27,028 nucleotides of DNA, from IMG/VR virus record IMGVR_UViG_3300038309_000258, positions 919-27,946 of that record. One strand, given 5' to 3'. How positions within the stretch are numbered: position 1 is the first letter of the stretch; each line of letters opens with the position of its first letter. This DNA comes from a virus. Positions 2,740-27,028 of this stretch are shown in pieces. The notes below the pieces were generated by a model. That model made no database searches, was not told the DNA's origin, and was given only the letters and a program-made list of their open reading frames with translations. The translations under genes and the position numbers were made by a program.

Positions 2740-3362
2740 TTATAAATTTGTTTTACTTTACTTTTTTTCCCAATTCTTTTTATTTGGTACTTTTTATTTG
2801 CTATCCTTAAAAGTCTTTCATCATGTGTAGCTATAATAAATTGAGTTCCAAATTTATCAGAAAGATGTTGAACCATATCCCCAAACTTAGGGGTCAAATC
2901 TCCTAAGTTTGCGACTGGTTCATCGAAAAATAATATATTTCTCATTTTATTTGTTTTCATTAAATGGAAAATGACCTTAAAACAAAATCCAATTGTAGAT
3001 ATAAGCCCTCCACCCACATCTCCATCATCTTTTCTTAAATCAAGTTCATTTCCATCTTCAAATAACATCGGTTGCCATTCAAAACCACTTAATTTTTCTT
3101 TTGGCTCTATTTTAAATTCATAATTAAACTCATCCCAAATATAATTTATCACTGAATTTATTGTATTTTCTATATTGAATTTAAAATTTGATTGTATTTC
3201 ATATATTGATTCACTTATTATGCTTTTAGATTTTTCAAAAAGTTCTTTATCATATTTTAAATTTATTACTTTTTTTCTATCATTTTTAATAGAATTTTTT
3301 ATACCTTGGATTCTTGATTTTATAGATACGTATTCAATTTCATTGTTTTCCATGTTTTTCAT
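2736..3362 (-). CDS. SbcC/Rad50-like C-terminal ATPase half
   Basis: This 208-residue protein holds only the C-terminal half of an SMC/Rad50-type ATPase. Residues about 8-75 are coiled coil. They are followed by the ABC-signature region (DDGDVGGGL, 112-120), Walker B (NILFFDEPV, D147/E148), the D-loop (ANLGD) and the switch histidine (THDE, H180). Walker A is absent here but present in the protein at 4971-6020, so the two must pair to form a working ATP site. Start ATG 3362 overlaps the upstream TGA as ATGA and has no clear ribosome site, so translation is probably coupled. The family role is double-strand-end processing with SbcD/gp47. It is the last gene of the leftward block. Confidence 0.85.
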   Translation of the reverse strand: MKNMENNEIEYVSIKSRIQGIKNSIKNDRKKVINLKYDKELFEKSKSIISESIYEIQSNFKFNIENTINSVINYIWDEFNYEFKIEPKEKLSGFEWQPMLFEDGNELDLRKDDGDVGGGLISTIGFCFKVIFHLMKTNKMRNILFFDEPVANLGDLTPKFGDMVQHLSDKFGTQFIIATHDERLLRIANKKYQIKRIGKKSKVKQIYN

Positions 3363-3850
3363 ATTGTATTTTTCTTTTGAGATTTTTTTGTTTTTTTAGG
3401 ATTTTTGATGTAGTTTTTTATTTTATATGAATTTATTTTGCCACCTGTATATGAATTTCTTTTTATGGCCATTTTTATAGATTCTTTTGAAGTCAATCCA
3501 AGATCCATAGCTGTTAATGCGTGTTGTGATCCACTTCCTATTGAATAATGTTTTTTTAGATCAAGAGTATTGATAAACAATTCACCATCACACAAACCGA
3601 CCATTGACACTTCCCCGTGATCAACTATAAAAGATTGACAATCAATATTTTTCAAACTTATTTCTGGGATATTATTCATATACATATCTATAAGTGTTTC
3701 GATGCCATGGACATCTCCACAAAAAAAAGCAATTACATTTTTATTTACAACAACTTTTTTATTGAAATTGTCGTCGATAATAGTGCCAGATTCTGTTGTG
3801 GCCCTTGAATCATAAGATATTACCCCGTCTTTATATGAAATTGTCGTCAT
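3359..3850 (-). CDS. HslV/proteasome-beta-like Ntn hydrolase
   Basis: The 163-residue product begins MTTISYKDGVISYDSR, matching the start of HslV-type peptidases in which Met is removed to expose catalytic Thr1. Counting from that Thr, D13 and the K30/K31 pair fall near the family's Asp17 and Lys33. The later IGSGSQHALTAMD motif matches the HslV IGSGG-x-YALAA region, and a YTGG turn follows. The C-terminal about 20 residues are Lys-rich and probably disordered. The ribosome site is AAGGA. No HslU-like unfoldase is seen nearby. It sits inside the split SbcCD cluster. The fold assignment is solid; the substrate and any self-compartmentalised assembly are unknown. Confidence 0.75.
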   Translation of the reverse strand: MTTISYKDGVISYDSRATTESGTIIDDNFNKKVVVNKNVIAFFCGDVHGIETLIDMYMNNIPEISLKNIDCQSFIVDHGEVSMVGLCDGELFINTLDLKKHYSIGSGSQHALTAMDLGLTSKESIKMAIKRNSYTGGKINSYKIKNYIKNPKKTKKSQKKNTI

Positions 3851-4131: not shown

Positions 4132-5007
4132 TTAATCAAAGATTATTTTTTTTAATTCTTTCCAAGATTTTTCTTTTTTTATTTTATTCAATATGAGTTT
4201 ATCTATGTTTTTTTTACTTTCTCCAATATCAAAAATTATATTCCTCTCTCTCTTTTCTTTTAATTCTAAATGAGTTCTCGATATAACATTTTTTTTATGT
4301 GGTATTTCAATTAAAGATATATCACCTTTATCTTTGTTATAGAAAAAAAATGAAGGAGCATAATCTAAAAAATAATTCGATGCATCTTTTCTCAAGATAG
4401 GCCCTGAATTCATTATTACTCTTTTATTTTTCTCTATAAAAAATCTTCTATGAATATCTCCGCATATGATAATATCATATTTCTTATGTTTTTCTAAAAA
4501 CTCTTCAGCCTCTTTGAATTCAACGTTTTTTATGGCTAATTCTTTTGTTGTTATTGAATCATGAATAACAAGTATATTGTTATTCGTTGTTGGCTCTGGA
4601 ACTTCATCTTCAAAATCACACCCATATAGAAAAAAATTTTCAATTTTTATAGGGTCTTTTGACAGCTTTGTCATTTGGTCTAATTTTATCAAGAGATTTG
4701 TTGAGCTTTCATTTTTTGTCCTCATGTATTTATCATGTTGGCCTAAACAGCAATACATTTTCTCTTTTAGATTTTTCAAATGTGAACTTAATTTGTAAAA
4801 AGATATAAAATTCCTTGGAGTATCTGTTTGATCCCCTGAATTTAAAATAATTGCTTTATTTTTATTCGCAAAGTTTATGATAAATTCAAGTTTATTATCT
4901 TGTTCTTCAACAAGATTGTCGGTCCTGCATATAGGGTTTTCGCCTAATATATGCATATCAGATATGAATATTATATTTTTATTAAATTCTGTCCACATTC
5001 TGGGCAA
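4132..5007 (-). CDS. SbcD/Mre11-like nuclease (T4 gp47-like)
   Basis: Calcineurin-type phosphoesterase motifs occur in order: SDMH (D17, H19), SGDQTD (D59), GQHD (89-92), VIHD (H149) and CGDIH (H186), followed by NSGP. The third motif is GQHD rather than the usual GNHD. It is the nuclease partner of the SbcC pieces and resects or opens DNA ends for recombination. The frame opens at TTG 5007, with an in-frame ATG at 4998; either start overlaps the end of the SbcC N-half (28-37 bases), and GGA just upstream could serve both. The tail after about residue 235 is Lys-rich helix and probably docks on the SbcC coil. Confidence 0.85.
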   Translation of the reverse strand: MPRMWTEFNKNIIFISDMHILGENPICRTDNLVEEQDNKLEFIINFANKNKAIILNSGDQTDTPRNFISFYKLSSHLKNLKEKMYCCLGQHDKYMRTKNESSTNLLIKLDQMTKLSKDPIKIENFFLYGCDFEDEVPEPTTNNNILVIHDSITTKELAIKNVEFKEAEEFLEKHKKYDIIICGDIHRRFFIEKNKRVIMNSGPILRKDASNYFLDYAPSFFFYNKDKGDISLIEIPHKKNVISRTHLELKEKRERNIIFDIGESKKNIDKLILNKIKKEKSWKELKKIIFD

Positions 5008-6020
5008 GTTTCCATTTTATTGTATCGTTTTTTTATACCTTCTATTTTTTCTTCGACTTCTTTTATATCTGATCTTATAGATATAATTGATTTTATTGCT
5101 TTCAACCCATTTTTTAGTTCAATAATATTTTGATTTAATCCATCCTTTTTGTTGTTTTGTTTTAATAATTCATTCCCTGATTCTAAGATTATATCTATTT
5201 GTTTTTTATTATCTTTCCATTTTTTTATTATTTTTAGAATTTCTAATATTCTTTTATTTTCTTGTGAGGATCTAACTTTTGAGTTAAATGATTCGTAAAG
5301 ATTTTCAATTTCGTCTATATTATTTTTTATATTTTCTGTATCATTTCTTTTTAATTGTAATTTTATTTTTTCTAATATTTTATTTTTCTCTTTGTATTTT
5401 TTTACTTTATTTGTTATCTCTCTTTTAACTTGTATTAAATTTTCTAAACCACTATATCCACATGTATCTATATCTTTTAATATTTTTTTCTTATTTTTTA
5501 TGTTGGTGTATATTCTTTTTATCTCTTTTTGAGAATCGTTTATATTTTTGGTAATTTCTTTTAGTTTCGTATCCCATTTTTCAATTCCTAATGTTTCATT
5601 TATTTTTTTTGATATAGCACTTTTCTCAGAAAAAATAAGATATGGTCTATCGAACTGTCCTATAAAATTATCTTCATCTAATTTTATAAAATCAGATACT
5701 TCTTCAGGTACTGTTTTGTTTAATGTCCCAAACGGGTTTTCTGAATCTTTATTTAATATATATTCTGCGTTTGATTTTGTTTTTTTAAAATCAATTTCGC
5801 CATTTTTGAATTCTAAATCAATTTCGCATTTTTTATTTTTTGAAAAGTGTGATATATATTTAGATCCAATAGGCCTAAATGTACAAGCTAATTTTATGGC
5901 TCGTATTAGTGCTGTTTTCCCATGAGAACTTAAACCTTGAAAAGCTGTAATTTTTTCATGAAAATCAACTTCCGTATCTTCATGACTTTTGAAGTTTTTG
6001 ATTTTTGCTTTTTTTAGCAT
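4971..6020 (-). CDS. SbcC/Rad50-like N-terminal ATPase half with zinc hook at its end
   Basis: The 349-residue product starts with a Rad50-type N-lobe: Walker A GLSSHGKT (29-36, K35) and a Q-loop at FIGQFDRPYL (Q122). Residues about 150-330 are coiled coil. The protein stops 7 residues after CPEC (C339, C342), the Rad50 zinc-hook motif. Walker B and the signature motif are missing; they are encoded at 2736-3362. Two chains would meet at the hook through zinc, as in whole Rad50. The ATG overlaps the preceding stop by 7 bases. This is not a simple frameshift, because complete SbcD and other genes lie between the halves. Confidence 0.88.
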   Translation of the reverse strand: MLKKAKIKNFKSHEDTEVDFHEKITAFQGLSSHGKTALIRAIKLACTFRPIGSKYISHFSKNKKCEIDLEFKNGEIDFKKTKSNAEYILNKDSENPFGTLNKTVPEEVSDFIKLDEDNFIGQFDRPYLIFSEKSAISKKINETLGIEKWDTKLKEITKNINDSQKEIKRIYTNIKNKKKILKDIDTCGYSGLENLIQVKREITNKVKKYKEKNKILEKIKLQLKRNDTENIKNNIDEIENLYESFNSKVRSSQENKRILEILKIIKKWKDNKKQIDIILESGNELLKQNNKKDGLNQNIIELKNGLKAIKSIISIRSDIKEVEEKIEGIKKRYNKMETCPECGQNLIKI

Positions 6021-6730
6021 TCTGTGTTTTCTTTTATATCTTTTATTTTTTTCAATTGTTCTTCTATGAATTTTGTATCTTTGAAATGATCAAGAAGGTA
6101 TACATTATCTTTAAACTCTCTATAAAACTCTCTATATTTTATTTTTTCTTTTAGAGATAGTTTTAAAGGAATTTCATTGATTGTTTGTGATTCATTAATA
6201 AGAAAATTTACAGATTTTATATTTTTATTATCGAGTCTCTGAGATAAAACTTTTCTTTCTTTCATTCCGTATGGTGAAAAATTAGTAGCTATAAATATAA
6301 AATTAACCCCATTCTTTTTTATATCATTTATTTCAATTGATGTCAACTCATTATATTCTATGAATGATATAGAATTTTTAAAACATAAATTTGACATCAA
6401 TTCACAAAATCTTGAGAACGGATTAAATTTTGTTAAAATAGCATAATTAACTCCTGTATAATGATAGTAATACTGTGGGAGTATTGATGTTTTTAATGTT
6501 TTATTCTTTGATTCAATGATCCTAAGTATAGAATTTTTTATAGTTAAATATAATTTAGATTCTCTCTTTTGGAAATTTAACCCAAGTAATCCTGAATTTA
6601 TGATATTGTATTTTGAAATAATTTCAGTACATAGATAGTTGATCGTAGGCTTAAAATCATTGTCAAGACAATTATTTATTTCATCATTTATTATTAAAGA
6701 AATAAATTCATCTAAATTTTCATTTGGCAT
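6014..6730 (-). CDS. Unknown protein, 238 aa, in recombination cluster
   Basis: No family is recognised. The N-terminal about 80 residues look helical, the middle alternates hydrophobic strands and helices (for example VNFIFIATNFSPYG, about 140-153) and the C-terminus is charged helix. There is no Walker A, zinc motif or membrane segment. It overlaps the EndoVII gene by 11 bases and the SbcC N-half by 7, so it is translated with them. By position it could be a recombination accessory such as a loader or mediator, but nothing in the sequence proves it. Low-complexity Ile/Asn/Lys content matches its neighbours. Confidence 0.6.
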   Translation of the reverse strand: MPNENLDEFISLIINDEINNCLDNDFKPTINYLCTEIISKYNIINSGLLGLNFQKRESKLYLTIKNSILRIIESKNKTLKTSILPQYYYHYTGVNYAILTKFNPFSRFCELMSNLCFKNSISFIEYNELTSIEINDIKKNGVNFIFIATNFSPYGMKERKVLSQRLDNKNIKSVNFLINESQTINEIPLKLSLKEKIKYREFYREFKDNVYLLDHFKDTKFIEEQLKKIKDIKENTEC

Positions 6731-7247
6731 TTTTTAAATACTCCGTGAGATCGTCAAGCATTTTTTCGAATTCTTTGTTTAAATAAATAATTCCATTTTT
6801 CTTTTTTGGTTTTGGGTATTCTGGTATATCTTTTCTTTTTGGATATACCTTGAAATAATATTTTTTTAATTTATTGTAATCTCTCTTATAAAATTTTTTT
6901 CTTTTTTCTTTTTTTTCTGTTGGATGTAAATAATTTGTTTGAGGAGCATCAAGGTAATCTGCTGTATTTCTTAAAATACTTGGAAGATCATTTTGAGATA
7001 TTAAATACCTTTGACATCTATTTTCTAACAGACCAATAAATGTATTACATAGTGAACAACAAACACCCCTACAAAGTCCAGTCCCCTTTATTTTTTTTTG
7101 ATGGTGATGATCAAGAACTGGACTTTGTATTTCTTTTTTACATATTGGACAAATATTGTTTTGCTCTAATCTTAATTTTTCTCTTATTTTTGGAATATCT
7201 GAATATTTTAATTCTACTATTTTCTTTTTTATCTTTTGTTTTGTCAT
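6720..7247 (-). CDS. Recombination endonuclease VII (HNH-type Holliday junction resolvase)
   Basis: The 175-residue product matches phage EndoVII. A zinc pair CPIC (C33, C36) is followed by LDHHHQ (D46-H49), then a second pair CCSLCN (C64, C67, with N68 at the catalytic Asn place) and FIGLLEN. T4 gp49 uses C23/C26/C58/C61 for zinc and D40/N62 near the cleavage site, so the layout agrees. The enzyme cuts four-way junctions and branched DNA before packaging. The N-terminal helix and the Lys/Tyr-rich C-terminus probably form the dimer and DNA-binding parts. Start ATG 7247 follows the previous stop by one base without a clear ribosome site, so it is coupled. Confidence 0.88.
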   Translation of the reverse strand: MTKQKIKKKIVELKYSDIPKIREKLRLEQNNICPICKKEIQSPVLDHHHQKKIKGTGLCRGVCCSLCNTFIGLLENRCQRYLISQNDLPSILRNTADYLDAPQTNYLHPTEKKEKRKKFYKRDYNKLKKYYFKVYPKRKDIPEYPKPKKKNGIIYLNKEFEKMLDDLTEYLKNAK

Positions 7248-7248
7248 T

Positions 7249-7671
7249 TTAATTGTTTTTAGATGTCGTATTTGTGTTTTTATTTATATTATTAAATACA
7301 TCCATTTTTTCAATTATTTCCTGCATTCTTTCTGAAGATTGCCTTACTATATCAGGATTTTGATGATTGATACTAAAAAAAGAACTCATAGCAAAATCAG
7401 CGAAATAACTGAAAGCAACGGTTAGAATATTTTGAAGTATATAGTTTAATATTGGTTCATTTTTATCTGATTCTCCAAGTAATTCATAAATATATTTTCT
7501 TGTTTGGTTAAGTCCAGCTTTCGTAAAAGGAATAGATAAATTCAAAAATTCAATATCTGTCAAGACTTCTGGATTATCTTGTGATGATATAATTCCAATT
7601 ATGTATTCTTGCAATATTGCTTTTTCATCCTTAGTTAACTCTACATTTGTTCCGGATTCTGTTTTTTTCAT
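7249..7671 (-). CDS. Unknown helical protein, 140 aa
   Basis: Start ATG 7671 has AAGGAG six bases upstream and lies 9 bases after the FEN-type nuclease gene. The product is helical and fairly acidic, with a hydrophobic central helix (NYILQNILTVAFSYFADFAM, about 76-95) that looks like a buried core rather than a clear membrane span. The tail is rich in Asn, Thr and Lys and probably disordered. It has no cysteines or nucleotide-binding motif. It lies between two nucleases of recombination and repair, which suggests but does not show a role there. Confidence 0.6.
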   Translation of the reverse strand: MKKTESGTNVELTKDEKAILQEYIIGIISSQDNPEVLTDIEFLNLSIPFTKAGLNQTRKYIYELLGESDKNEPILNYILQNILTVAFSYFADFAMSSFFSINHQNPDIVRQSSERMQEIIEKMDVFNNINKNTNTTSKNN

Positions 7672-7680
7672 GTTTTCTCC

Positions 7681-8538
7681 TTATTTTAGATTAAAAGCTT
7701 TTGTCCATAATGACATTTGTTTATGAGTTAGAAAATTCCCGAAATCCCATTCCATAAAAAGACTTCTAAAATTTTCTTTTGTATTCTCAAATTGTTCAAT
7801 TTCTTTTACGTCAATTGGGATATCTCCTTTTGAAAATGGTAATACAGAAGCATCAAGATAGTCTTCAAATATTTTTTTATCAAAATCAGGGAATGGTATT
7901 TCTTTATTAATTATTTTTAGCGATGTCTTTATTCCAATTTTCGGAACTCCTGGTATCTCATTTTTCTTTCCAACTAAAGCTTTATTTATGGCTAATTCTG
8001 AAGGATTTAAACCCATTTTTTCTTTAATTGATGTTAAGGTGCACGTTTCATTTTTTAATGGATTATAATGGATAATTCTATTATTTATGCATTGCATTAG
8101 ATCATTGTCGGTTGAAAATATGATAACTTTATTTTTTTTAGAATAAATACCAGAATATAGAGCTATTAGATCGTCTCCTTCATATCCTTTCTGTGAAATT
8201 ATTTGAATTCCAAGTTTTTCAATAATATTATATCGAATATGGTTAAATATTTCACTTTTAAAGTTGTCTATTTTCTCCAATTTATGTTGTTTATAAAAAT
8301 CATATAAATTAGCTCTATACGAATGTTCACTATCAAAAAAGAAAACCATTATTGAATTCAGACATAATCTTTTATAATCAAGTATTTGTTTTAAAACAAA
8401 TAATGTTGTTAATTGTTTTTGTTGGTTTGGTGCTGCGTTAACAGCACCATGAAAACATCTATGTAAAAGATTATTTCCGTCAATAAAAAGAAGTCTCTTA
8501 CCTTTTATTTTATTGAAATTTAGGTTTCCGTACTTCAT
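7681..8538 (-). CDS. FEN-1-type 5'-3' exonuclease / flap nuclease (T4 RNase H-like)
   Basis: The 285-residue product carries the 5'-nuclease family motifs: LLFIDGNNLLHR (D20), FFFDSEHSYR (D69), YEGDDLIA (E120, D122, D123) and STDNDL (D144, D146), all of which coordinate two metals. A helix-hairpin-helix region follows (GKKNEIPGVPKIGIKTSLKI). The length fits stand-alone phage 5' nucleases (T4 Rnh about 305, T5 about 290 residues). It removes RNA primers and flaps, feeding the DNA ligase encoded further upstream. The start overlaps the recombinase gene by 29 bases, so the two are expressed together. Confidence 0.88.
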   Translation of the reverse strand: MKYGNLNFNKIKGKRLLFIDGNNLLHRCFHGAVNAAPNQQKQLTTLFVLKQILDYKRLCLNSIMVFFFDSEHSYRANLYDFYKQHKLEKIDNFKSEIFNHIRYNIIEKLGIQIISQKGYEGDDLIALYSGIYSKKNKVIIFSTDNDLMQCINNRIIHYNPLKNETCTLTSIKEKMGLNPSELAINKALVGKKNEIPGVPKIGIKTSLKIINKEIPFPDFDKKIFEDYLDASVLPFSKGDIPIDVKEIEQFENTKENFRSLFMEWDFGNFLTHKQMSLWTKAFNLK

Positions 8539-9556
8539 TAAGCTTCTCTTCCCTTAGTAGCCATGTTTTTTCTGTGACTTTTGATAGTTTTGTTTCAAGA
8601 TTGTTTTCTTCAATGAGTTTGGTTAAATCACTTCTGTTTATTTTTTTAGGTGGCATAAGTGTCGGATCAATTCCAATAATTTCTGAAATTTTTTCAGAAT
8701 CATAAGAGTCTTTATATCCGATTAAATAATTTAAACAAGATCCAATATTATCAATTCCATAATCGAAAGTGATAACAGTGTCTGCTTCTCGATATGGTTT
8801 TGCAACTTTAGATCTTTTGATTTTAGCCCTCGTCACAACACCTCTTGTGAATTCTTGTCCATCAATTGTTTTTGTAAGTTTTTTTAATTGTGCTAACCAT
8901 GGAACCAGATGTGTATAAAAATCAAGCGCCTTACCACCACTTCTTGTTTTTTCAGGGAATACACTTCCAATTTTATCTCTGACTTGAGATATAATAATTA
9001 ATGTGAAATCGACATCAGACATCATTGAACAAATATTTGGGAAAAAATCTCTTGTTCCAAATTTTTGTTTTTCAAGATCGTAAGAACCTTTTTTTACAGT
9101 TTTTTCATCTACAATTTTATCAAATTCTTCAAAAGATTTTTCAGATTTAAGAGCGTCCCATGAATCTACAACATATATAATTCCTTCATCTTTCTTTTTC
9201 TTTTTTAGTGTTCTTGCTATGTCGTAACCTGTTTCTTCTACTGTAGGAATATTTTTCCATATTGTATCATTAACAAATTTATTTCCATACATCTGTTCGA
9301 TATCAAAATCCATAACTTCTTCAGGATTGTTGTAATGAATGATGATTTTTTTTGTATCAGGAAAGGTTTTTGATTTCGGCTTTGAATAATATGCATTTGC
9401 ACATATTTCAAGTGCAAAAATAGTTTTGCCTGAACTACCATCACCCACAGGATTTGTTATTCTCCCCCTTGGAATCCCACCATTAATCCCCTTTTGTGAA
9501 CAGGCAAGATTCATTGGAATTGATCCAGTTGAAAACCAACTTAATTGTTCTGACAT
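8510..9556 (-). CDS. RecA/UvsX-like strand-exchange recombinase
   Basis: In the 348-residue product, Walker A is GDGSSGKT (38-45), Walker B is IIYVVDS (D131), ISQVRDKIG (Q191) is the switch region and RSGGKALDFYTHLV matches the loop-2 and following helix of RecA proteins. N-terminal GSIPMNLACS-x-GINGGIPRGRI matches the RecA entry segment, which in RecA reads S-G-S-L-x-LD-x-ALG-x-GG-x-P-x-GR. It pairs homologous DNA for repair and recombination-primed replication together with the gp32-like SSB upstream. The gene is separated from the SSB gene by 78 bases holding a 34-base palindrome. It could equally be called UvsX; the C-terminal lobe is too diverged to decide. Confidence 0.88.
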   Translation of the reverse strand: MSEQLSWFSTGSIPMNLACSQKGINGGIPRGRITNPVGDGSSGKTIFALEICANAYYSKPKSKTFPDTKKIIIHYNNPEEVMDFDIEQMYGNKFVNDTIWKNIPTVEETGYDIARTLKKKKKDEGIIYVVDSWDALKSEKSFEEFDKIVDEKTVKKGSYDLEKQKFGTRDFFPNICSMMSDVDFTLIIISQVRDKIGSVFPEKTRSGGKALDFYTHLVPWLAQLKKLTKTIDGQEFTRGVVTRAKIKRSKVAKPYREADTVITFDYGIDNIGSCLNYLIGYKDSYDSEKISEIIGIDPTLMPPKKINRSDLTKLIEENNLETKLSKVTEKTWLLREEKLNEVRKPKFQ

Positions 9557-9586
9557 TTTTACTCCATTCTAATAAGTATTTTACAT

Positions 9587-9620
9587 TTCACATAGTTCAA
9601 ATTAATTTGAACTATGTGAA
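9587..9620. repeat. Perfect 34-base palindrome between SSB and recombinase genes
   Basis: The arms ttcacatagttcaaatt and aatttgaactatgtgaa are exact reverse complements with no spacer. In the leftward transcript this folds into a hairpin of about 15 pairs starting 14 bases after the SSB stop. No clear U-run follows on either strand, so it is not a standard intrinsic terminator. A possible sigma70-like element (TTGAAC, 16 bases, TACTTA) overlaps its downstream arm in the leftward direction, so it could also be an operator. The palindrome is certain; the role is open. Confidence 0.85.
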
Positions 9621-9634
9621 TAAATTAGATAGTA

Positions 9635-10864
9635 TTAATCATTAAGATACCAGAGTTCAATAATATTGAATTTTGTTTCTTCAATATCATCTTCATCATA
9701 ATCAATTTCGTGGAATTCACAGAAAGATTTAAGATCTTCTTTGTTTTGAGATATGAATTCTTCAATATCATCAATTTCATCTCTTTGTGGCCATGTTTTA
9801 TTTTCTTTTTTTTCTTTCATTTCTTTGATAAATTTTCTAATGGCAACTTTCATTTTGCGATTATCACCAATATCATCTTCATCAATTTCAACATTATTGT
9901 CTTCAATATACTCTTCAAGTTCTTCTGTATCGGCATTTTTATAGTCGAAATCAAGATTAATTTTTCTCTCTTTTTCTCTCTCTTTTTTCTTTTTAATTTC
10001 TTCTATTTTCTTTTGGAGACTTGATTTCCTATTTTCTTTTTCTTCAGAATCTTTTTCATCAATATTAGATGAAGAATTATCATCAGAACTATCACCATTA
10101 TTTATAAGTTCATATAACTCATCATATGTTTTAACTTCAATAAGTTCTTCAAGTGGCGGTAATTCAGCAGCTTTTTCAATAAGATCATCACCAAGTGGAT
10201 CTCTTTCGAGAAGTTTGTGTCCAGAATAATCCGGCATTTGGAATGGTTTCCCAGAAGGTGGTGTTACAGTTTTTGTAGAAACACTAAATTGGACAGTTCT
10301 TCCATTTTCAACGTCCGAAATATCAATCCATTCCTTATTTACTTTAACGCCTTCTGCTCCAATTTGAGGCTTTGCAAGAGGTTTAATTTTCCAACCCATA
10401 AAAAAAGCAGCTATTTCGAGAATTTGTATACCTTTTGATTTTTCTTTATTGCTTGATACATCTTGAACATAATAAACTTCTCTTTCTTTAACATTTAGTG
10501 CTTTAATGCCTTCTTTATCGTCAGGATCATTGATTGTTTTATCTGTTCTTTTTTCACATATAGGACAAGGCGACCCCAACATAGCCTTTGGACAAATAAC
10601 ATTTCTCATATACCCATTGACCATAATAGAATGGGTTTTTGTTATGAAGACGTATGAACTTTCATTATTTTTGTCAATATAAGGAATCATATTTAAAAAA
10701 TAATCATCATCTCTTGCTTTAATTCTGACAAATTCAAGACCATATTCTTTCATTTTTTCAGAATTTAAATAAGAGAAATTCTCTCCACTTGATGCATGTT
10801 TCTTTGCTCTTTCTGTTGAACTTCTTTTAAGAAGTTTTTTCTTTTCTTTTGCGCTTAAACTCAT
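9635..10864 (-). CDS. Single-stranded DNA-binding protein, T4 gp32-like, with extended acidic tail
   Basis: In the 409-residue product, the N-terminal LLKRSSTERA resembles the LAST motif of gp32 (KRKST), used for cooperative binding. The core has H78-x12-C91-x8-C100-x2-C103, nearly the T4 zinc spacing (H64-x12-C77-x9-C87-x2-C90). After about residue 225 the chain becomes acidic. After a Lys/Glu helix (about 280-305), two similar acidic blocks of about 40 residues follow, each with an E-E-[YF]-I/D-E-D-D-I pattern, ending in NIIELWYLND. An acidic C-terminus recruits replication partners in this family. At 409 residues it is longer than T4 gp32 (301). Start ATG 10864 overlaps the previous stop by 4 bases. 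Confidence 0.85.
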   Translation of the reverse strand: MSLSAKEKKKLLKRSSTERAKKHASSGENFSYLNSEKMKEYGLEFVRIKARDDDYFLNMIPYIDKNNESSYVFITKTHSIMVNGYMRNVICPKAMLGSPCPICEKRTDKTINDPDDKEGIKALNVKEREVYYVQDVSSNKEKSKGIQILEIAAFFMGWKIKPLAKPQIGAEGVKVNKEWIDISDVENGRTVQFSVSTKTVTPPSGKPFQMPDYSGHKLLERDPLGDDLIEKAAELPPLEELIEVKTYDELYELINNGDSSDDNSSSNIDEKDSEEKENRKSSLQKKIEEIKKKKEREKERKINLDFDYKNADTEELEEYIEDNNVEIDEDDIGDNRKMKVAIRKFIKEMKEKKENKTWPQRDEIDDIEEFISQNKEDLKSFCEFHEIDYDEDDIEETKFNIIELWYLND

Positions 10865-11400
10865 TTTTTCTTTTCCTTAAATTTTGATTTTTTCTTTATT
10901 ATACTTTTAGCTTTTTTCTTTGCCGTTTCTGATTCTTTTTTGTATTCTTCTTTTATCTTTTCTGTATTTATGTCAATCCAACCTCCTATCATTAATTTTA
11001 TTCCATCTGTTATTAAATTTCTTTTATTTCCTGCTGAATAATAATTTGAAATAGCTTTTTCATATTCTTCAGTACATTTACCAAGATCTTCAATAGCTTC
11101 TTTCATTATATCTTTTTGATTTAAAAAAAATGATTTGTATTCACTATCTGCTAACACAAATTGTTTCAGTTTTGTATCTGAGATATTTTTATCTTTTTCG
11201 GAAAGTTTTTTATATATTTCTGCAAATTTTATTTTAAGTTCTTCTTTTTGGTTCTTAAGTAATTCTGAATATGTTTTTTCTGAAATGACAAAATCTTTTT
11301 TCTTTTGGCTCATTATAACAGAAAATTCATAAATTGTCTGGGATAATTTATCTATTTCTTCAGGAATATTATTTTTGTTAAATTTAAGTCTGTTATCCAT
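10861..11400 (-). CDS. Unknown helical protein, 179 aa, between clamp loader and SSB
   Basis: The product is almost wholly alpha-helical and rich in Lys and Glu. A coiled-coil-like N-terminal two thirds (about residues 10-115) is followed by a short Gly-containing turn (IKLMIGGWIDINT) and a very basic tail (KKKAKSIIKKKSKFKEKKK). It has no cysteines and no ATPase motif. It starts 3 bases after the clamp-loader stop without a ribosome site and overlaps the SSB start, so it is tightly coupled to both. T4 places accessory loader genes near comparable functions, so it could help load clamp or helicase, but no similarity supports that directly. Confidence 0.6.
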   Translation of the reverse strand: MDNRLKFNKNNIPEEIDKLSQTIYEFSVIMSQKKKDFVISEKTYSELLKNQKEELKIKFAEIYKKLSEKDKNISDTKLKQFVLADSEYKSFFLNQKDIMKEAIEDLGKCTEEYEKAISNYYSAGNKRNLITDGIKLMIGGWIDINTEKIKEEYKKESETAKKKAKSIIKKKSKFKEKKK

Positions 11401-11403
11401 AAT

Positions 11404-12354
11404 CTAATCATTTTCACTGTAATAATTGTAGATTGCGAGAGCCAAACCTGCTTTTCCAGAATAAAATACATTCTCTTTGAAGCATTCAATTCCAAGGGAT
11501 GCTTTAAGTCTCGCAGTCTCTTTGTCTCTAAAAGGTTTTATAAGGATAGTACAAAGATAATTAAGAACACCTTGCCTTATATCTTCTGGTTTTCCTTGTA
11601 TTTTATTCATTAAATCAAGAGCTTTATCCATAGAACTTCTTTTAAATATTTCTTGATTAAATTCTTTCATATTAGAATCTTTACTTAAATCAATTTTATA
11701 ATTTTCTATAAATTCAATACTTTCTTCTGTATTCAATTTTGATATACTTTCAATTATACTTAAAATTTCTCTTGGTGTACCAAATGATGCTTCATATATT
11801 TTTTCATTAAGTATTTCATCAAATTTGACACTTTCTTTTTCTTTTACCCAATTAATAAATTTATCAGAATCGCCTTTTGATAATGGAGAAAATTTTAATC
11901 TCGTACATCTACTTAAAGCTGCTTCTTTAATTTTTTGTGGTTCTGTTGTACATATGATGAAAAAAGTATTTTTAGGATGATTCTCAAAGATATCGAGTAC
12001 AGCATCTTGAAAATTTTTTGTTGCTTCATGGAACTCATTCAATATATATATAGTCGAGTTGAAGAAGCTCCCCATCTTACAATCATCAATAATGCTTCTG
12101 GCTGTTTCTACTCCTGTTTTATCTGAAATATTTATTTCGACAACTGATTCTATTGGTGATTCGTATTTATTGCAGATTTTTTTTGCCATTAGATTTGCAA
12201 AAGTGCTCTTACCTGTTCCTCTACTTCCCGATAAAAGATATGTTGCTCCATCAACTTTTTTTATATGTGATAAAAAAACTTTTTTATTTAAATCACATCC
12301 AAACAATTCTGAAAATTTATTTGGTCTGAGTTTTGTCATTAGTCCTTTATTCAT
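11404..12354 (-). CDS. Sliding-clamp loader AAA+ ATPase (DnaX/RFC/gp44-like)
   Basis: The 316-residue product opens with TKLRPNKFSELFG, the standard RFC/DnaX entry motif (x-x-RP-x-x-F-x-E-x-x-G). Walker A is GSRGTGKS (43-50), the Walker B box is IYILNEFHEA (N106, E107) where DEAH or DExx is usual, sensor 1 lies at CTTEP and the SRC arginine finger at LSRCTRLKF (148-150). It opens the clamp encoded at 16614-17720 and places it on primed DNA. At 316 residues it resembles T4 gp44 (319) and lacks the long tau-type tail. ATG 12354 has AGGAG 8 bases upstream. No obvious small-subunit (gp62) gene is recognised nearby. Confidence 0.88.
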   Translation of the reverse strand: MNKGLMTKLRPNKFSELFGCDLNKKVFLSHIKKVDGATYLLSGSRGTGKSTFANLMAKKICNKYESPIESVVEINISDKTGVETARSIIDDCKMGSFFNSTIYILNEFHEATKNFQDAVLDIFENHPKNTFFIICTTEPQKIKEAALSRCTRLKFSPLSKGDSDKFINWVKEKESVKFDEILNEKIYEASFGTPREILSIIESISKLNTEESIEFIENYKIDLSKDSNMKEFNQEIFKRSSMDKALDLMNKIQGKPEDIRQGVLNYLCTILIKPFRDKETARLKASLGIECFKENVFYSGKAGLALAIYNYYSEND

Positions 12355-12379
12355 AAATTTACTCCTAACGCCTAATATC

Positions 12380-12625
12380 CTAATATTGACATCTCATAAT
12401 TTTTTCTACTAACTCTTTCAAATCATTTTCTTTTTTGTCCAATTCTGACTGAGATAACGGGTATTGTATCATAAGGTTTTTTAATCTGTAAATATATAGA
12501 CTTACAGTATCATCATATTCTTTAGGATATTTTAAAAGTCTATTTAAATTAGATTCACACGCTTCAAATGGTGTTGGATTCCCACAAATTGTACAATGTT
12601 CATGTCCACAAACGTATTTTTTCAT
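12380..12625 (-). CDS. Small Cys-rich probable zinc protein, 81 aa
   Basis: I chose ATG 12625 rather than the in-frame GTG at 12631 because GGAG lies 5 bases before the ATG and would abut the GTG. The product starts MKKYVCGHEHCTICGNPTPF. C6, C11, C14 and C23, with two His between, could bind one zinc; the rest (about 28-78) is helical and charged. It sits between the polymerase and clamp-loader genes, 12 bases after the polymerase stop, so a replisome accessory role is possible. No family is recognised. Confidence 0.65.
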   Translation of the reverse strand: MKKYVCGHEHCTICGNPTPFEACESNLNRLLKYPKEYDDTVSLYIYRLKNLMIQYPLSQSELDKKENDLKELVEKIMRCQY

Positions 12626-12637
12626 ACTCACTCCATT

Positions 12638-15600
12638 TTAATTGTTGATTGTTTTTTGAACTGTTTTTATAAATTTTTTAATTGATTTATCGTATTTCTG
12701 TCTATTTTCTTGATCAATTGATCCATGTCCGAAACTCAATGAATAAAAAATAAAAGCCTTATATTTTTCATTCCAATGAAATGTTCCAGCTTTCTCCATA
12801 ATTTTTTCATCTTCTTCAAAAAATTCAAGGGATATTTTTCCCATAGCTAATATAATTTTTGGTTTCGCCTTTTTAATATCGTCTTCAAGATGTCTCCAGC
12901 ATTTATTTTTATGGTCTTCAGTTGGTTTATTTCCCTTACCTGGATAACATTTTACACTTGTAGCGATTGTTATATCCTCAATATGTAAATCCAATTCATA
13001 TAAATTTTTAAGTAATTCATTTGATAGATTGCATGATAATAATTTTCCATTCTCATTGTCGTGCCATGATGGGTGTTCAGTTATTATCATTATCGTTTTA
13101 TCTCCAAAGTGAGTTGGATATGGTCGACTTTCTAAAGAACATCCTTCGCAAGTGAAATCAATTTCTTCAGATTTCTTATAGTTTTTTATTAGCTTTAATT
13201 TTGATGGATATTTCTTACCTTGATATATTTTATATACATCTTCTTCTTCATATTTATTTTTGCACATTTGTAGAAGTGTAGGCGCAACAACTTTGAGATT
13301 ATTTGATATAGGGAATTCAAAATACTCTTGGATTTCTGTTTTAGGTAATGCATTATAGTCCCAAGCGTCTATAATTGTCAAGAGTTTTCTTATTTTTGTT
13401 TCATTTTCTGACCTATCTTTTGAAACATAAAAAGAGGTTGGTTTAAATTTTTGTTTTTTTTCATGAGATGCTTCTTCTGCTTGTTTATCTCCAAGTCCTT
13501 TTATCTCTGAAAATGGAGCAAGTAGTATTCCATCATTTGAAATCCATTTTTTAGCATCAGAAAAGCCTATTTTAGGCAACTTTATAGACAACCCTTGGTT
13601 GTATGCTTCTTTCACAATTTGGTGCTTTTTAGAGTCTCCTCCGCAGGTTAAATTTGCACAGTAGAAATGACTTGGATAATAATATTTTAACCAAGCTGTC
13701 ACATAGGCTAAATATGCGTATGCTACGGAATGGCTTTTGTTAAAAGAATAATTTGCAGATGCCTCAAGTTCAGTCCAAAATTGTAGAGCTTCATCTTTTG
13801 TCATTGTTTTTTGTTTTAAACAACCTTCAATAAACATATCTTTATATTTATCAAATTCTCTTACGTCCCTTTTCTTTCCAATGATTTTTCTGATACTGTC
13901 AGCTACAGAAAATGGAAGCCCTGCGATTTTTGTAAACATGAACATTTGTTGTTCCTGAAAACAGACTAAGGCCAAAGTTTCTTTTGTGATTTCTTCATAT
14001 ATTGGATGTTTTGGTTCCCACTCTTTACCATGTTTTCTTAAAAGGTATTCATCTGAGATCCCTGAATCTGCTGCTCCTGGACGAACAAGAGCTACCGCAG
14101 CAACCATATCATTAAATGTATCTATCCTTAATTTTTTTATATATGAAGTCATTGTTCTTGTATTCATTTGGAATACGCCAGCAGTATCTCCTTTTGACAG
14201 AGATTTAAACACGTTTTTATCATCAACTGACATAAAATCTTTTATATTGTATTTTTTATTGTCTGTTTTTTCTATGAGTTTAAATGTTTCATCAATAATA
14301 GACAATTGAGATAAACCAAGGAGATCCAATTTACATAATCCACAATACTCTGAATTATGCATATCCCAATTTACAACGATTTGTTTATTATTCTTTGATC
14401 CAACCCTAACAAGATTGCATTGTCCAGATAACATTAAATCATTTTTAGATACGATAATGGCAGAGGCGTGTTGTCCACGTCCACGTATTGTCCCTTCGAG
14501 TTTTATTGCAATGTCAACAATTTTGGGATATTTTTTATAAAATTCTTTTCCTTCTTCTGTTTCATTTTTTCCTCGCTTTACAATATCTGATCCTTTACTA
14601 TCCAAAGCCTTTGCAAATGTATCAACTTCTTTTAAAGGGATATTAAAAACTCTCGCAACATCACGAACAACACTCTTACCCTTTAGGTAAGAAAATGTTG
14701 ATACTCCAGCGATATTATTTTCACCATATTTATCAATGAGATATTGTCTTGCTTCGTCTCTTTTCACATCAGGAATGTCAAAATCAATATCTGGATAATC
14801 CTTTCTCTCTGGATTTAAAAACCTCTCAAAGATTAAATTATATTGAATTGGATCTATTTCTGTAATATTTAAAAAGTCGCAAATTAATGAAGACCCGCTA
14901 CTCCCACGGCCTGGCGACACTGTCCAACCTTGATCTTTACAATATTGTATGAAGTCTTCAAGTATTAAGAAATACATTTCGAAATTTTTCTCAGTAATGA
15001 CTTCAAATTCCATTTCAACACGGTCTTTATACTCTTTCCATTTAGGATCTTCCAAGTCTATATTTTTTAGTGACTTAGCTTTTTCTTTATAGAGCTTCTT
15101 TAAATTATCTTTAGCTGATAATTCTGGATATTTAAGGCATTCTGGTAAAGATATATCCTGTTTTTTGATCCTAAAATCCTTACATTTTTCTGCAATTTTG
15201 AGAGTATTAAATAAACTTTTCTTTACTGTTTTTTGATCTATTTTGCCTATTTTTTTATAATTTTCTAAAATTTCTTCCCAACTCTGAATGTAACTACCCT
15301 CAAAATCAAAACGAAATCTATTTGGATTATCCCATGTACTGCCCGTTTGAATAGCTAATAAAACATCATGTATTTCATGATCTTCTCGTTTAACATAATG
15401 AGCATCAGTTGTTGTAATCAAAGGTATTTTATATGCTTCGTGAAGTTCAAGGCATAATTCATTTATTTCATGTTGAACACTCAGGTCATGTGGCATTATT
15501 TCAAGGAATAAATCACCTTTTATTTTTTTATGGAGTTTTTCAAGAAATTTGATACTATGTTCAAGTTTCAACCAACTTCCGGCACACGCAGTTGTAATAA

Positions 15601-15994
15601 TAAGTCCTTCACATTTTTCATAAAGAATATTGAAATCAATGCGTGGTTTTCTATAGTAATATTCTAAATTTGCTATTGATAGAATTTCACATAAATTTCT
15701 CCATCCTATTTCATCTTTAACATAAACACAACAATGCCCTGATTTTCCCTTGAAATCATTGTATGACGTTAGATAAAGTTCACATCCAATAATAGGGACT
15801 ATATCTCTTTTTGAACATTCTTCTTGAAAGTCGATAGTGGCGTCTATTGATCCATGATCAGATATACCAAGATATTTGAATCCCATTTCTTTAGCTCTTT
15901 CAGCATATTCTGAAACCTTACCAAGGCCATCAAGAAGAGATCCTTTATCTGTATGTAAATGTAATGGGCAAAAATTTCTATTTTTATTATCCAT
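12638..15994 (-). CDS. dnaE: DNA polymerase III alpha (DnaE) with PHP domain and C-terminal uracil-glycosylase-like domain
   Basis: In the 1118-residue product, residues 1-270 are a PHP domain with an intact metal set (LHLHT, ISDHG, GCE, TTDAHY), so it may proofread. The polymerase core has PGRGSSGSSL (361-370), PDIDFD (D402, D404) and KLDLLGL (third Asp, D557), then helix-hairpin-helix material to about 930. The end differs from cellular DnaE: residues about 947-1118 look like a family-4 uracil-DNA glycosylase, with CEGC (C949, C952), VKC (C1016), C1032 and KPKIILAMGKISLEFF. C-x15-C matches the iron-sulfur spacing, but the GEAPG motif reads TEHPSWHD and the HPS motif is unclear, so catalysis is doubtful. 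ATG 15994 overlaps a small upstream gene by 8 bases and lacks a ribosome site. Confidence 0.92.
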   Translation of the reverse strand: MDNKNRNFCPLHLHTDKGSLLDGLGKVSEYAERAKEMGFKYLGISDHGSIDATIDFQEECSKRDIVPIIGCELYLTSYNDFKGKSGHCCVYVKDEIGWRNLCEILSIANLEYYYRKPRIDFNILYEKCEGLIITTACAGSWLKLEHSIKFLEKLHKKIKGDLFLEIMPHDLSVQHEINELCLELHEAYKIPLITTTDAHYVKREDHEIHDVLLAIQTGSTWDNPNRFRFDFEGSYIQSWEEILENYKKIGKIDQKTVKKSLFNTLKIAEKCKDFRIKKQDISLPECLKYPELSAKDNLKKLYKEKAKSLKNIDLEDPKWKEYKDRVEMEFEVITEKNFEMYFLILEDFIQYCKDQGWTVSPGRGSSGSSLICDFLNITEIDPIQYNLIFERFLNPERKDYPDIDFDIPDVKRDEARQYLIDKYGENNIAGVSTFSYLKGKSVVRDVARVFNIPLKEVDTFAKALDSKGSDIVKRGKNETEEGKEFYKKYPKIVDIAIKLEGTIRGRGQHASAIIVSKNDLMLSGQCNLVRVGSKNNKQIVVNWDMHNSEYCGLCKLDLLGLSQLSIIDETFKLIEKTDNKKYNIKDFMSVDDKNVFKSLSKGDTAGVFQMNTRTMTSYIKKLRIDTFNDMVAAVALVRPGAADSGISDEYLLRKHGKEWEPKHPIYEEITKETLALVCFQEQQMFMFTKIAGLPFSVADSIRKIIGKKRDVREFDKYKDMFIEGCLKQKTMTKDEALQFWTELEASANYSFNKSHSVAYAYLAYVTAWLKYYYPSHFYCANLTCGGDSKKHQIVKEAYNQGLSIKLPKIGFSDAKKWISNDGILLAPFSEIKGLGDKQAEEASHEKKQKFKPTSFYVSKDRSENETKIRKLLTIIDAWDYNALPKTEIQEYFEFPISNNLKVVAPTLLQMCKNKYEEEDVYKIYQGKKYPSKLKLIKNYKKSEEIDFTCEGCSLESRPYPTHFGDKTIMIITEHPSWHDNENGKLLSCNLSNELLKNLYELDLHIEDITIATSVKCYPGKGNKPTEDHKNKCWRHLEDDIKKAKPKIILAMGKISLEFFEEDEKIMEKAGTFHWNEKYKAFIFYSLSFGHGSIDQENRQKYDKSIKKFIKTVQKTINN

Positions 15995-25342: not shown

Positions 25343-25951
25343 TTATCGAAAATCACCAGAACCCTGAATAGCATTTCTTTCTTTTCTTGAATAAAGTTTA
25401 TCAATATTTTTTTGAGCAACTTTTTCAAGCGTACTTCCTGTAAGCTTTGCAAAATTCGAAATCAATTGGAGCAAGTGAGATAAAACTGTTTCATCTTCTG
25501 AGCCGATTCCAATATAATTATTCACACAATAAGAGAGATCTAAAGACATTGTACTTAATTCATTAGTAATAGAAACATATTCGTAGAATTCTGAATCAAA
25601 TTTTTGCCAGTCAGCAAAATCATTTTCCTCATACCATTTTTTAATTAATGCTGTATACCAAAGAACATCCCCAAGTTCAAGATGGATTTTTTCAATTTGG
25701 TCTTCAATTTTATGTCCGTCTCTAATACTTTTCTTGACGATATCACAAATTTCTCCAACTTCAGAAATAATCCCATTCCTTAAATAATATAAATTAAAAC
25801 TTTTTTCTAAGCATGTTCCAAATGCCTTATCCTTATAATTGTTAAACCACTCTTCATTGTAGACTTTGACTTCTTCATAAAAAATTTCAAGATTTTCGAC
25901 ATCAACAATAAAATCAACATTTACATTTTCCTCATTGTACTTAATAATCAT
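25343..25951 (-). CDS. MazG-like nucleotide pyrophosphohydrolase
   Basis: I chose ATG 25951 (202 aa), which has AAGGAG 6 bases upstream; the longer frame to 25999 lacks a site. The MazG metal motifs are present: ISEVGEICD (E64, E67) and LELGDVLWY (E92, D95). The end, NIDKLYSRKERNAIQGSGDFR, matches the usual N-x-x-KL-x-x-R ... G-x-GD-R finish. The protein would hydrolyse (d)NTPs to monophosphates, cleaning or remodelling the nucleotide pool. It overlaps the kinase gene by 11 bases. Both it and the thymidylate synthase point to dNTP pool control. Confidence 0.82.
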   Translation of the reverse strand: MIIKYNEENVNVDFIVDVENLEIFYEEVKVYNEEWFNNYKDKAFGTCLEKSFNLYYLRNGIISEVGEICDIVKKSIRDGHKIEDQIEKIHLELGDVLWYTALIKKWYEENDFADWQKFDSEFYEYVSITNELSTMSLDLSYCVNNYIGIGSEDETVLSHLLQLISNFAKLTGSTLEKVAQKNIDKLYSRKERNAIQGSGDFR

Positions 25952-26528
25952 TTGAATCTCCTTTACTGTTTTCTGTTGTATTATTTTTAAATCCTTCATT
26001 GGAAATAAAATTCATAGCTGAATTAAAAAGATCAAGTTTCGTATCAACGGTATAATGAATATCATAATTTATACTTTTGATATTTTTAGGATCATCCTTA
26101 TCACAATTGGGCGCGAGATGATCAATTCTTTCAATAAGTAGAGTACTAATATTGCATAAATCTATTGATCTTTCAAGAGTTTTTTTAATATTTTGAGGTT
26201 CTCTACAATGAATAAAAAGATAAATGTCTTCTCTATGAATTGAAATCTCATCAAGAAGTGAATTAATGAGGTCTATTGTTTCATTTATTGAACCTTCATT
26301 ATATTCATCCCAAGCATTTTTTACTTTAGATCTGAATTCTCTTGCTTTATCAGACTTATCATTGATAGGACATCCGAGATTTTCAATTGCTTCATTTATA
26401 GGTTCAATGGTTGAATAATTTACAACACTTATTTTGTAGTTATTTTCTTTTATAATGTGTTCAATATACTCAACAAAAAGATCTTTTCCACTTCCACCAC
26501 TGCCATTAATAATATATGCCTTTAACAT
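25941..26528 (-). CDS. P-loop kinase, deoxynucleoside monophosphate kinase-like
   Basis: The 195-residue product opens MLKAYIINGSGGSGKDLFVEY with Walker A GSGGSGKD (9-16). The GKD ending occurs in T4 gp1-type dNMP kinases and some related small kinases. IYLFIHCREPQNIKKT (about 104-119) corresponds to the middle strand and R-E-P phosphate contact. GAGG precedes ATG 26528, 12 bases after the thymidylate synthase stop. Likely role: phosphorylation of dNMPs made by thymidylate synthase or host DNA breakdown. The exact substrate cannot be read from sequence. Confidence 0.65.
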   Translation of the reverse strand: MLKAYIINGSGGSGKDLFVEYIEHIIKENNYKISVVNYSTIEPINEAIENLGCPINDKSDKAREFRSKVKNAWDEYNEGSINETIDLINSLLDEISIHREDIYLFIHCREPQNIKKTLERSIDLCNISTLLIERIDHLAPNCDKDDPKNIKSINYDIHYTVDTKLDLFNSAMNFISNEGFKNNTTENSKGDSNDY

Positions 26529-26540
26529 TTTATCCTCTTT

Positions 26541-27028
26541 TTATTTACCTCTAAGAATTTTTGCACTTTCCCAAACATAATCATATAAATGTAATCCACT
26601 ACATGAATAAATTATTTCGCCATTATTGACGCCTATTTCTCCAGCCATATATTGTTTTAGAATTTCAATTCCAGCTAAATTCGCAGGGAATCCTCCCCAT
26701 AAATCATTAGACCTGAAAAATGGGAAAAAGTGAAGAGATCCATTCTGAATCCTAACAAAAATATGCCTAAGACATGGTGGATCATAAAGGACTAAATCAG
26801 TCGGTTGTGCTATTTGAAGAACCATTTGATTGTTCCTATGTCCTTTATTTTTATATGTCCAAATAATTTCATCTATTTGGTTAATTGTCATTGTCATTTT
26901 TTTTATATGACTTTTTACATGATTTTTTTTAAAGAAAAGTAATTCATTCAAAATAGGGACAGAACAAAGTCTTGATCCATAACTATAAGCTTCATTTTCA
27001 TCTTTTTGATCTGTCATTAAGTATGGGA
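26541..27028 (-). CDS. thyA: Thymidylate synthase, short archaeal-like type, 5' partial
   Basis: The frame stays open to the window edge, and the family's N-terminal about 70-80 residues are missing, so the start lies outside; the ATG at 27017 is internal. Residues counted from that ATG: EAYSYGSRL (9-17), catalytic DPPCLR (C82), RSND (102-105), PAN (N113) and LHLYDY (H143, Y145). The PAN asparagine at the position of E. coli N177 favours dUMP over dCMP as substrate. The chain ends soon after the H-x-Y motif, like short archaeal enzymes and unlike E. coli ThyA, and RNNQ replaces the usual double-Arg. It supplies dTMP to the kinase downstream. Confidence 0.82.
   Translation of the reverse strand, partial: PYLMTDQKDENEAYSYGSRLCSVPILNELLFFKKNHVKSHIKKMTMTINQIDEIIWTYKNKGHRNNQMVLQIAQPTDLVLYDPPCLRHIFVRIQNGSLHFFPFFRSNDLWGGFPANLAGIEILKQYMAGEIGVNNGEIIYSCSGLHLYDYVWESAKILRGK

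What the first reader, a model, noticed from the sequence alone, without database searches (positions are those of the whole stretch)
12638..13160. DnaE polymerase fused to a uracil-glycosylase-superfamily domain
The last about 170 residues of the polymerase carry C949-x2-C952, C1016-x15-C1032 and the KPKIILAMGKIS strand, the layout of iron-sulfur family-4 UDGs, in place of the usual DnaE tail (OB fold and tau-binding region). The catalytic phrases are altered (TEHPSWHD for GEAPG-x-x-E; no clean HPS). The domain could be a uracil sensor that stalls or steers the polymerase, or a redox/structural Fe-S part, instead of an active glycosylase. With MazG and thymidylate synthase in the same block, control of uracil in phage DNA is a reasonable theme.
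Basis: partly seen in the sequence, partly recalled or inferred. Interest (0 to 1): 0.75.

Follow-up and report, generated by a model that had tools for sequence, protein, structure and literature searches.

The report
Phage polymerase carrying a dead uracil-glycosylase domain
This virus of bacteria builds its DNA-copying enzyme with a uracil-repair domain fused to the end; most of its relatives keep that domain's active site, but here it has lost key catalytic residues while keeping its iron-sulfur cysteines, so it most likely helps the enzyme handle DNA instead of cutting out uracil.

Summary
The DnaE gene (12638-15994, minus strand, 1118 aa) ends in a family-4 uracil-DNA glycosylase (UDG) domain: PF03167 at twice its cut-off; AlphaFold pLDDT 90; best PDB fold matches are family-4 UDGs and UdgX. 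All four cysteines are present, but three of four pocket residues are gone: Asn to Thr1012, His to Ser1087, Phe to Leu; only Glu973 stays. It is not an artefact: 53 of 191 distinct DnaE genes in my (biased) viral sample carry the tail, against 0 of 76 bacterial ones. Most keep GEAPGxxED, TNVVKC and HPA intact, including the window's sister on a polymerase-core tree (support 98/96). The catalytic set was lost at least 8 times while the domain was kept. In Nickievirus, where it is lost, the domain evolves under strong purifying selection (dN/dS 0.05-0.10, like the core). So a non-catalytic role is favoured, most simply DNA binding by the replicase, as for vaccinia D4. Neither uracil sensing nor DNA binding is shown. 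The architecture was noted in 2014 for some Yersinia pestis and Salmonella strains (PMC3919608), and UDG domains on family-A phage polymerases are known. New here: breadth, intact relatives, repeated catalytic loss under selection, and inteins inside the UDG motifs.

The parts
12638..15994 (-). Phage DnaE (DNA polymerase III alpha, C-family) with C-terminal UDG domain, 1118 aa
   Evidence: TIGR00594 710 bits (cut-off 434); PF07733, PF17657, PF02811 and PF03167 all above cut-off; polymerase residues D402, D404, D557 and PHP metal-site residues H12, H14, H47, E72, H87, C137, D197, H199 invariant in a 28-member alignment; full-length model pLDDT 86.9, best fold match Taq DnaE 2hpi
12641..13162 (-). 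UDG family-4-like domain, residues 945-1118
   Evidence: PF03167 50 bits on the tail; AF2 pLDDT 90.3; Foldseek to 4zby, 1ui1, UdgX
13139..13150 (-). C949 and C952, first two [4Fe-4S] ligands (inferred)
   Evidence: sequence; columns at least 90% conserved in the family
13067..13081 (-). altered motif A: T972-E973-H974-P975-S976 in place of GE(A/G)PG; the Glu is kept
   Evidence: HMM alignment with 50 relatives
12947..12961 (-). T1012-S-V-K-C1016 in place of N-V-V-K-C: uracil-binding Asn lost, third Cys kept
   Evidence: role of the Asn (N91) from PMC10359453
12899..12901 (-). C1032, fourth [4Fe-4S] ligand (inferred)
   Evidence: invariant
12731..12736 (-). S1087-F1088 in place of His-Pro of motif B
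   Evidence: role of the His (H178) from PMC10359453
11404..12354 (-). clamp-loader AAA+ subunit (same replication block)
   Evidence: phrog_5846 160.8 bits; PF00004, PF13177
16614..17720 (-). sliding clamp / processivity factor (same replication block)
   Evidence: phrog_947 E = 1.9e-9
25343..25999 (-). MazG-like nucleotide pyrophosphohydrolase
   Evidence: PF03819 35.2 bits, cut-off 22
26541..27017 (-). thymidylate-synthase-like ORF, homologous to about half of the profile
   Evidence: PF00303 42.7 bits, cut-off 24.3, profile 103-217 of 266

Best explanation
Shown: a replicative phage DnaE whose bacterial-type C-terminal tail is replaced by a family-4 UDG domain, inherited from a phage DnaE-UDG lineage in which most members keep a complete UDG catalytic set. 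In the window's lineage that set has decayed (Asn, His and the stacking Phe lost; Glu kept) while the fold and the four Fe-S cysteines stay. Inferred: the domain is now a non-catalytic, Fe-S-stabilised DNA-binding module of the replicase, working in cis the way the UDG D4 works in the vaccinia polymerase holoenzyme. It would hold DNA near the polymerase and raise processivity, doing a job the OB/CTD tail does in bacterial DnaE. In catalytically intact relatives the same module could additionally find or remove uracil during replication.
For: Fold and family. Breadth and position: PF03167 matches all 41 tails scanned; 53 of 191 distinct viral DnaE genes versus 0 of 76 bacterial ones (biased sample). 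Catalytic state; pocket roles from PMC10359453. Ancestry: polymerase-core tree puts the window with L110 (intact) at 98/96, and intact/degenerate needs 8 changes. Domain kept under selection after catalytic loss: dN/dS of the UDG in Nickievirus pairs 0.053, 0.048, 0.102 against core 0.079, 0.088, 0.065. L129 keeps 27/35 other conserved positions and 4/4 Cys but 2/12 active-site ones (p = 0.0004). Precedent for a catalysis-independent UDG in a polymerase holoenzyme: vaccinia D4 (PMC1936997).
Against: No DNA binding, Fe-S content or processivity effect is shown. The selection test is on Nickievirus, not on the window's own lineage, for which no close relative was found (nearest 46% core identity). 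In the window, loss at active-site positions (2/12 kept) is not significantly worse than at other conserved positions (17/35 kept; p = 0.09), so general decay is not excluded. Some relatives lack the domain altogether (L117-L126), so it is dispensable somewhere. The phage also encodes a clamp and clamp loader, so an extra processivity element is not obviously needed.
Confidence: 0.6

Rival explanations
1. Uracil (or modified-base) reader: the domain still binds a flipped base in template or product and signals or stalls the polymerase without excising it.
For: Glu973 and the fold are kept. MazG and a TS-like gene lie in the same block. Family-A phage polymerases also carry UDG-like domains; a solved one, 9qhs, is titled 'with modified template'.
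Against: Both residues that hydrogen-bond uracil in family-4 UDG/UdgX (Asn and motif-B His) are lost, as is the Phe, so specific uracil binding is unlikely. No evidence of modified DNA in this phage.
Confidence: 0.17
2. Vestige: the domain is decaying in the window's lineage after loss of a catalytic function and will be lost, as in the truncated DnaE of related phages.
For: Related DnaE genes end about 50 residues after the core, with neither UDG nor OB (L117-L126). The window retains only 17/35 non-active conserved positions.
Against: The frame is open to the end, all four Cys are kept, and the model is confident. Other catalytically dead tails are under strong purifying selection.
Confidence: 0.13
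3. The domain is still an active glycosylase with an unconventional catalytic set that clears uracil behind or ahead of the fork.
For: The motif-A Glu is kept; most relatives look catalytically intact; a His lies three residues after the motif-B position (H1090).
Against: Asn, Phe and motif-B His-Pro are lost together; TIGR00758 scores 46.5 against a cut-off of 125.3.
Confidence: 0.05
4. Redox control: the [4Fe-4S] cluster switches DNA affinity or polymerase activity.
For: The four Cys are the best-kept positions of the tail in the window's clade.
Against: In family-4 UDGs the cluster is generally regarded as structural (own knowledge). Nickievirus keeps 3 of 4 Cys, V1VFA-S and CMS-2020a none, while keeping the domain.
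Confidence: 0.05

Closest known systems
DnaEX variant with UDG domain (some Yersinia pestis and Salmonella enterica strains; Timinskas et al., PMC3919608)
   Same: PHP-Pol3-(HhH)2 core with OB and CTD replaced by a PF03167 UDG domain. That is the window's architecture.
   Different: The paper gives one sentence, treats it as a bacterial accessory polymerase, and in the passages read does not discuss catalytic residues. Here it is a widespread phage replicase lineage, mostly catalytically intact.
Nickievirus DnaE (Pseudomonas phage nickie), Rhizobium phage V1VFA-S, Escherichia phage CMS-2020a
   Same: DnaE with a C-terminal UDG-like domain lacking the catalytic set.
   Different: About 25-28% identity to the window; Fe-S cysteines partly or wholly lost; the tree places them apart from the window's clade.
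Family-A phage polymerases with UDG-like domain (SPO1-type; phrog_17; PDB 9qhs phiLo; predicted models of SP-15, EFLK1 and others)
   Same: UDG-4-like domain on a phage replicative polymerase.
   Different: Unrelated polymerase family and usually N-terminal; a convergent fusion.
Family-4 UDGs (4zby, 1ui1) and UdgX (6ail)
   Same: Fold and four-Cys layout.
   Different: Window lacks the pocket Asn, the motif-B His and GEAPG; it has no KRRIH R-loop of UdgX.
Vaccinia D4 UDG in the E9-A20-D4 holoenzyme
   Same: UDG fold recruited to a viral replicase with a catalysis-independent role (PMC1936997): works like.
   Different: Family-1 UDG, separate subunit, no Fe-S; not homologous at family level.

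Membership tests
C-family DNA polymerase III alpha (DnaE) | PHP, Pol3 palm and finger domains; catalytic Asp triad | tested here: met
   PF02811, PF07733, PF17657 and TIGR00594 above cut-offs; D402, D404, D557 invariant
C-family DNA polymerase III alpha (DnaE) | C-terminal OB and tau-binding CTD (typical DnaE1) | tested here: not met
   no such match; about 80-residue linker then UDG; Pfam also failed to detect OB in other DnaE, so this rests mostly on length
DnaEX-UDG architecture of PMC3919608 | PF03167 domain in place of OB and CTD | tested here: met
Family-4 UDG | alpha/beta UDG fold | tested here: met
   AF2 model and Foldseek; PF03167 above cut-off
Family-4 UDG | four cysteines of the [4Fe-4S] cluster | tested here: met
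   C949, C952, C1016, C1032; the cluster itself not testable
Family-4 UDG | motif A GE(A/G)PG | tested here: not met
   TEHPS, only Glu and Pro kept
Family-4 UDG | uracil-binding Asn (TNxV) and motif-B His (HPS/HPA) | tested here: not met
   T1012 and S1087
Family-4 UDG | NCBIfam TIGR00758 cut-off | tested here: not met
   46.5 of 125.3 bits
Family-4 UDG | uracil excision from DNA | not testable with these tools
   needs an enzyme assay
UdgX | R-loop KRRIH with crosslinking His | tested here: not met
   segment after VKC reads YPGKGNKPTEDHKNKC, with no insert; TIGR03914 21.4 of 190 bits

The most novel reading that the evidence does not exclude
Phages repeatedly turned a uracil-DNA glycosylase fused to a bacterial-type replicase into a catalytically dead, selected-for DNA-holding or base-reading part of the polymerase, independently of poxviruses; the window's DnaE is one such end state with the Fe-S cluster kept.
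Probability: 0.45. Interest if true: 0.72.

Novelty: new variant of a known kind. Interest (0 to 1): 0.55.

Why it matters
UDGs are thought of as repair enzymes; a large phage replicase family carrying one on the polymerase itself, mostly intact but catalytically lost at least eight times while still under selection, makes a long-suspected second role of the UDG fold (as in poxvirus D4) testable in a simple system. Intact and dead natural versions give ready-made comparisons: does the polymerase need a UDG, or only its shape? It also suggests how phage replicases may replace the bacterial tau-binding tail, and whether some phages screen or tolerate uracil or modified bases during replication.

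Tried and rejected
Single-protein scan of viral contigs with the window DnaE: no hits; alignment queries solved this. Idea that all phage DnaE carry the tail: rejected; Streptomyces-phage DnaE have an unrelated tail. Idea that the roughly 120 extra residues before the UDG in many relatives are an OB fold: not supported by PDB profile search or profile comparison; left open. UdgX-like crosslinker: rejected, no R-loop. P-loop ORF 25941-26528 as a dNMP kinase that would hint at a modified base: no support. Standalone UDG elsewhere in the own record: none, one PF03167 match only (28-kb fragment). dN/dS for intact pairs failed from saturated synonymous sites. No held paper found that describes a phage DnaE-UDG fusion.

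Full report
WHAT IS THERE. The window (919-27946 of a 27,946-base virus record) carries on its minus strand a phage replication block. The DnaE gene at 12638-15994 is one open frame of 1118 residues. Pfam finds PHP, DNA_pol3_alpha, DNA_pol3_finger and then, at 966-1082, the uracil-DNA glycosylase superfamily PF03167 at 45.7 bits (50 bits on the tail alone; cut-off 24.3).

STRUCTURE. AlphaFold2 with a 41-sequence alignment of tails gives mean pLDDT 90.3 and pTM 0.89. Foldseek against the PDB returns family-4 UDGs first (4zby, 4zbx, 1ui1), then UdgX. The full-length model (pLDDT 86.9) matches Taq, E. coli and M. tuberculosis DnaE and, separately, UDGs. Between polymerase core and UDG lie only about 80 residues and no OB or CTD domain was recognised. 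The sequence shows this directly for length; Pfam also missed the OB of ordinary phage DnaE, so the absence of an OB rests on length, not on a negative search.

CATALYTIC STATE. In UdgX/family-4 enzymes N91 and H178 hydrogen-bond uracil and help it leave, and the motif-A Glu activates the nucleophile (PMC10359453). In an HMM alignment of the domain the window has Glu973, but Thr1012 for the Asn, Ser1087 for the His and Leu for the conserved Phe; all four Cys remain. It is therefore very probably not a glycosylase (inference from residues).

THE FAMILY. Alignment-based scans and an iterated HMM found the tail on more than 50 distinct viral DnaE genes: 53 of 191 distinct viral DnaE with a complete C-terminus, against 0 of 76 bacterial ones. 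These samples were drawn by similarity to the window, so the fractions are not prevalence. PF03167 matches all 41 tails tested individually. Most have GEAPGxxED, TNVVKC, HPAxVLY and four Cys intact. Named phages with the tail are Pseudomonas phage nickie and relatives, Rhizobium phage V1VFA-S and Escherichia phage CMS-2020a; all three lack the catalytic set.

HISTORY. A maximum-likelihood tree of the polymerase core alone (72 rows, 838 columns) puts the window with L110, whose UDG keeps Glu, Asn and His, at 98/96, inside a starred clade of mainly intact members. Intact versus degenerate needs 8 changes; the degenerate label needs 8 changes even if only starred branches are believed. So the active set was present near the base of the window's clade and has been lost repeatedly. 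Whether the Nickievirus-like C-terminal fusion shares that origin is unresolved. Three loci (L178, L179, L185) carry an intact UDG at the N-terminus of DnaE, one clade at 100/100, a separate fusion event.

DEAD BUT SELECTED. In the three Nickievirus genomes the UDG segment, without the catalytic set, has dN/dS 0.053, 0.048 and 0.102, against 0.079, 0.088 and 0.065 for the polymerase core. In L129 active-site positions are lost (2/12) while other conserved positions (27/35) and all Cys stay (p = 0.0004). For the window itself this contrast is weaker (2/12 versus 17/35, p = 0.09), and no close relative exists in the collections for a rate test; this is the main weakness of the case.

INTEINS. 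In L106/L107 and L192 an intein-like insert of about 390 residues (starts Cys, ends His-Asn before a Cys) sits exactly at the VVK|C Fe-S cysteine. In L194 a different insert of about 340 residues sits directly after GEAPG. Inteins tend to occupy conserved functional sites (own knowledge), which fits a working domain in those phages.

MECHANISM. Most likely the window's domain is a non-catalytic, Fe-S-stabilised DNA-handling part of the replicase, standing where bacterial DnaE has its OB/tau-binding tail. The nearest working analogy is the vaccinia UDG D4, whose role in the polymerase holoenzyme is catalysis-independent (PMC1936997). Fold, motif state, ancestry and (in a relative) selection are shown; DNA binding and processivity are inferred. 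A uracil reader is less likely because the residues that recognise uracil are lost.

KNOWN OR NEW. Timinskas et al. (PMC3919608) already reported a DnaE variant in some Y. pestis and S. enterica strains with OB and CTD replaced by a PF03167 UDG domain, so the architecture is known. UDG-like domains on family-A phage polymerases are also known (phrog_17; 9qhs; predicted viral models). No held paper describing the phage DnaE-UDG family, its intact members or its repeated catalytic loss was found, but most subscription papers are not held. Hence: new variant of a known kind.

Noticed in passing
L106 (ORF 8194-12858), L107, L192 (ORF 5908-10539), L194 (ORF 5986-10416): Intein-like inserts inside the fused UDG domain: at the VVK|C Fe-S cysteine (L106, L107, L192) and directly after GEAPG (L194, a different element).
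   Followed up: partly
L178 5959-9981, L179 5929-10032, L185 5974-9993: DnaE with a catalytically intact UDG at the N-terminus instead of the C-terminus: a separate fusion event.
   Followed up: partly
L117, L118, L120, L121, L125 and relatives: DnaE of about 900 aa ending some 50 residues after the core, with neither UDG nor OB, in phages related to the UDG carriers.
   Followed up: partly
L191, L196, L198 (DnaE tails): Motif A reads GQDPG (Glu to Gln, recalling GQDPY of family-1 UDG) with Asn and His kept.
   Followed up: no
tails of most intact members, e.g. L015 6625-7209: A conserved stretch of roughly 120 residues (GGVYGN..D.TDF.M..F...Y...K..IEHC) between HhH and UDG, missing in the window; no match in the PDB.
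   Followed up: partly
window 3359-3850 (-): Small proteasome-subunit-like (Ntn-hydrolase) ORF, PF00227 just above cut-off, inside the recombination genes.
   Followed up: no
window 4971-6020 and 2736-3362 (-): Two ATPase-half ORFs (AAA_23 and AAA_15) resembling the two ends of an SbcC/gp46-type protein, with a nuclease-like (SbcD-type) and other ORFs between them; possibly a split gene.
   Followed up: no
window 26541-27017 (-): Thymidylate-synthase-like ORF, short (profile 103-217 of 266), with PPCL where TS has PPCH; the remainder may be missing or elsewhere.
   Followed up: partly
window 25941-26528 (-): ORF with P-loop-like IINGSGGSGKD start and no confident family match; weak UDG-like hit is probably chance.
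   Followed up: partly
L257 2066-2929 and 3194-6817: In an Acidobacteria MAG a standalone intact UDG-4 gene lies directly upstream of dnaE.
   Followed up: no
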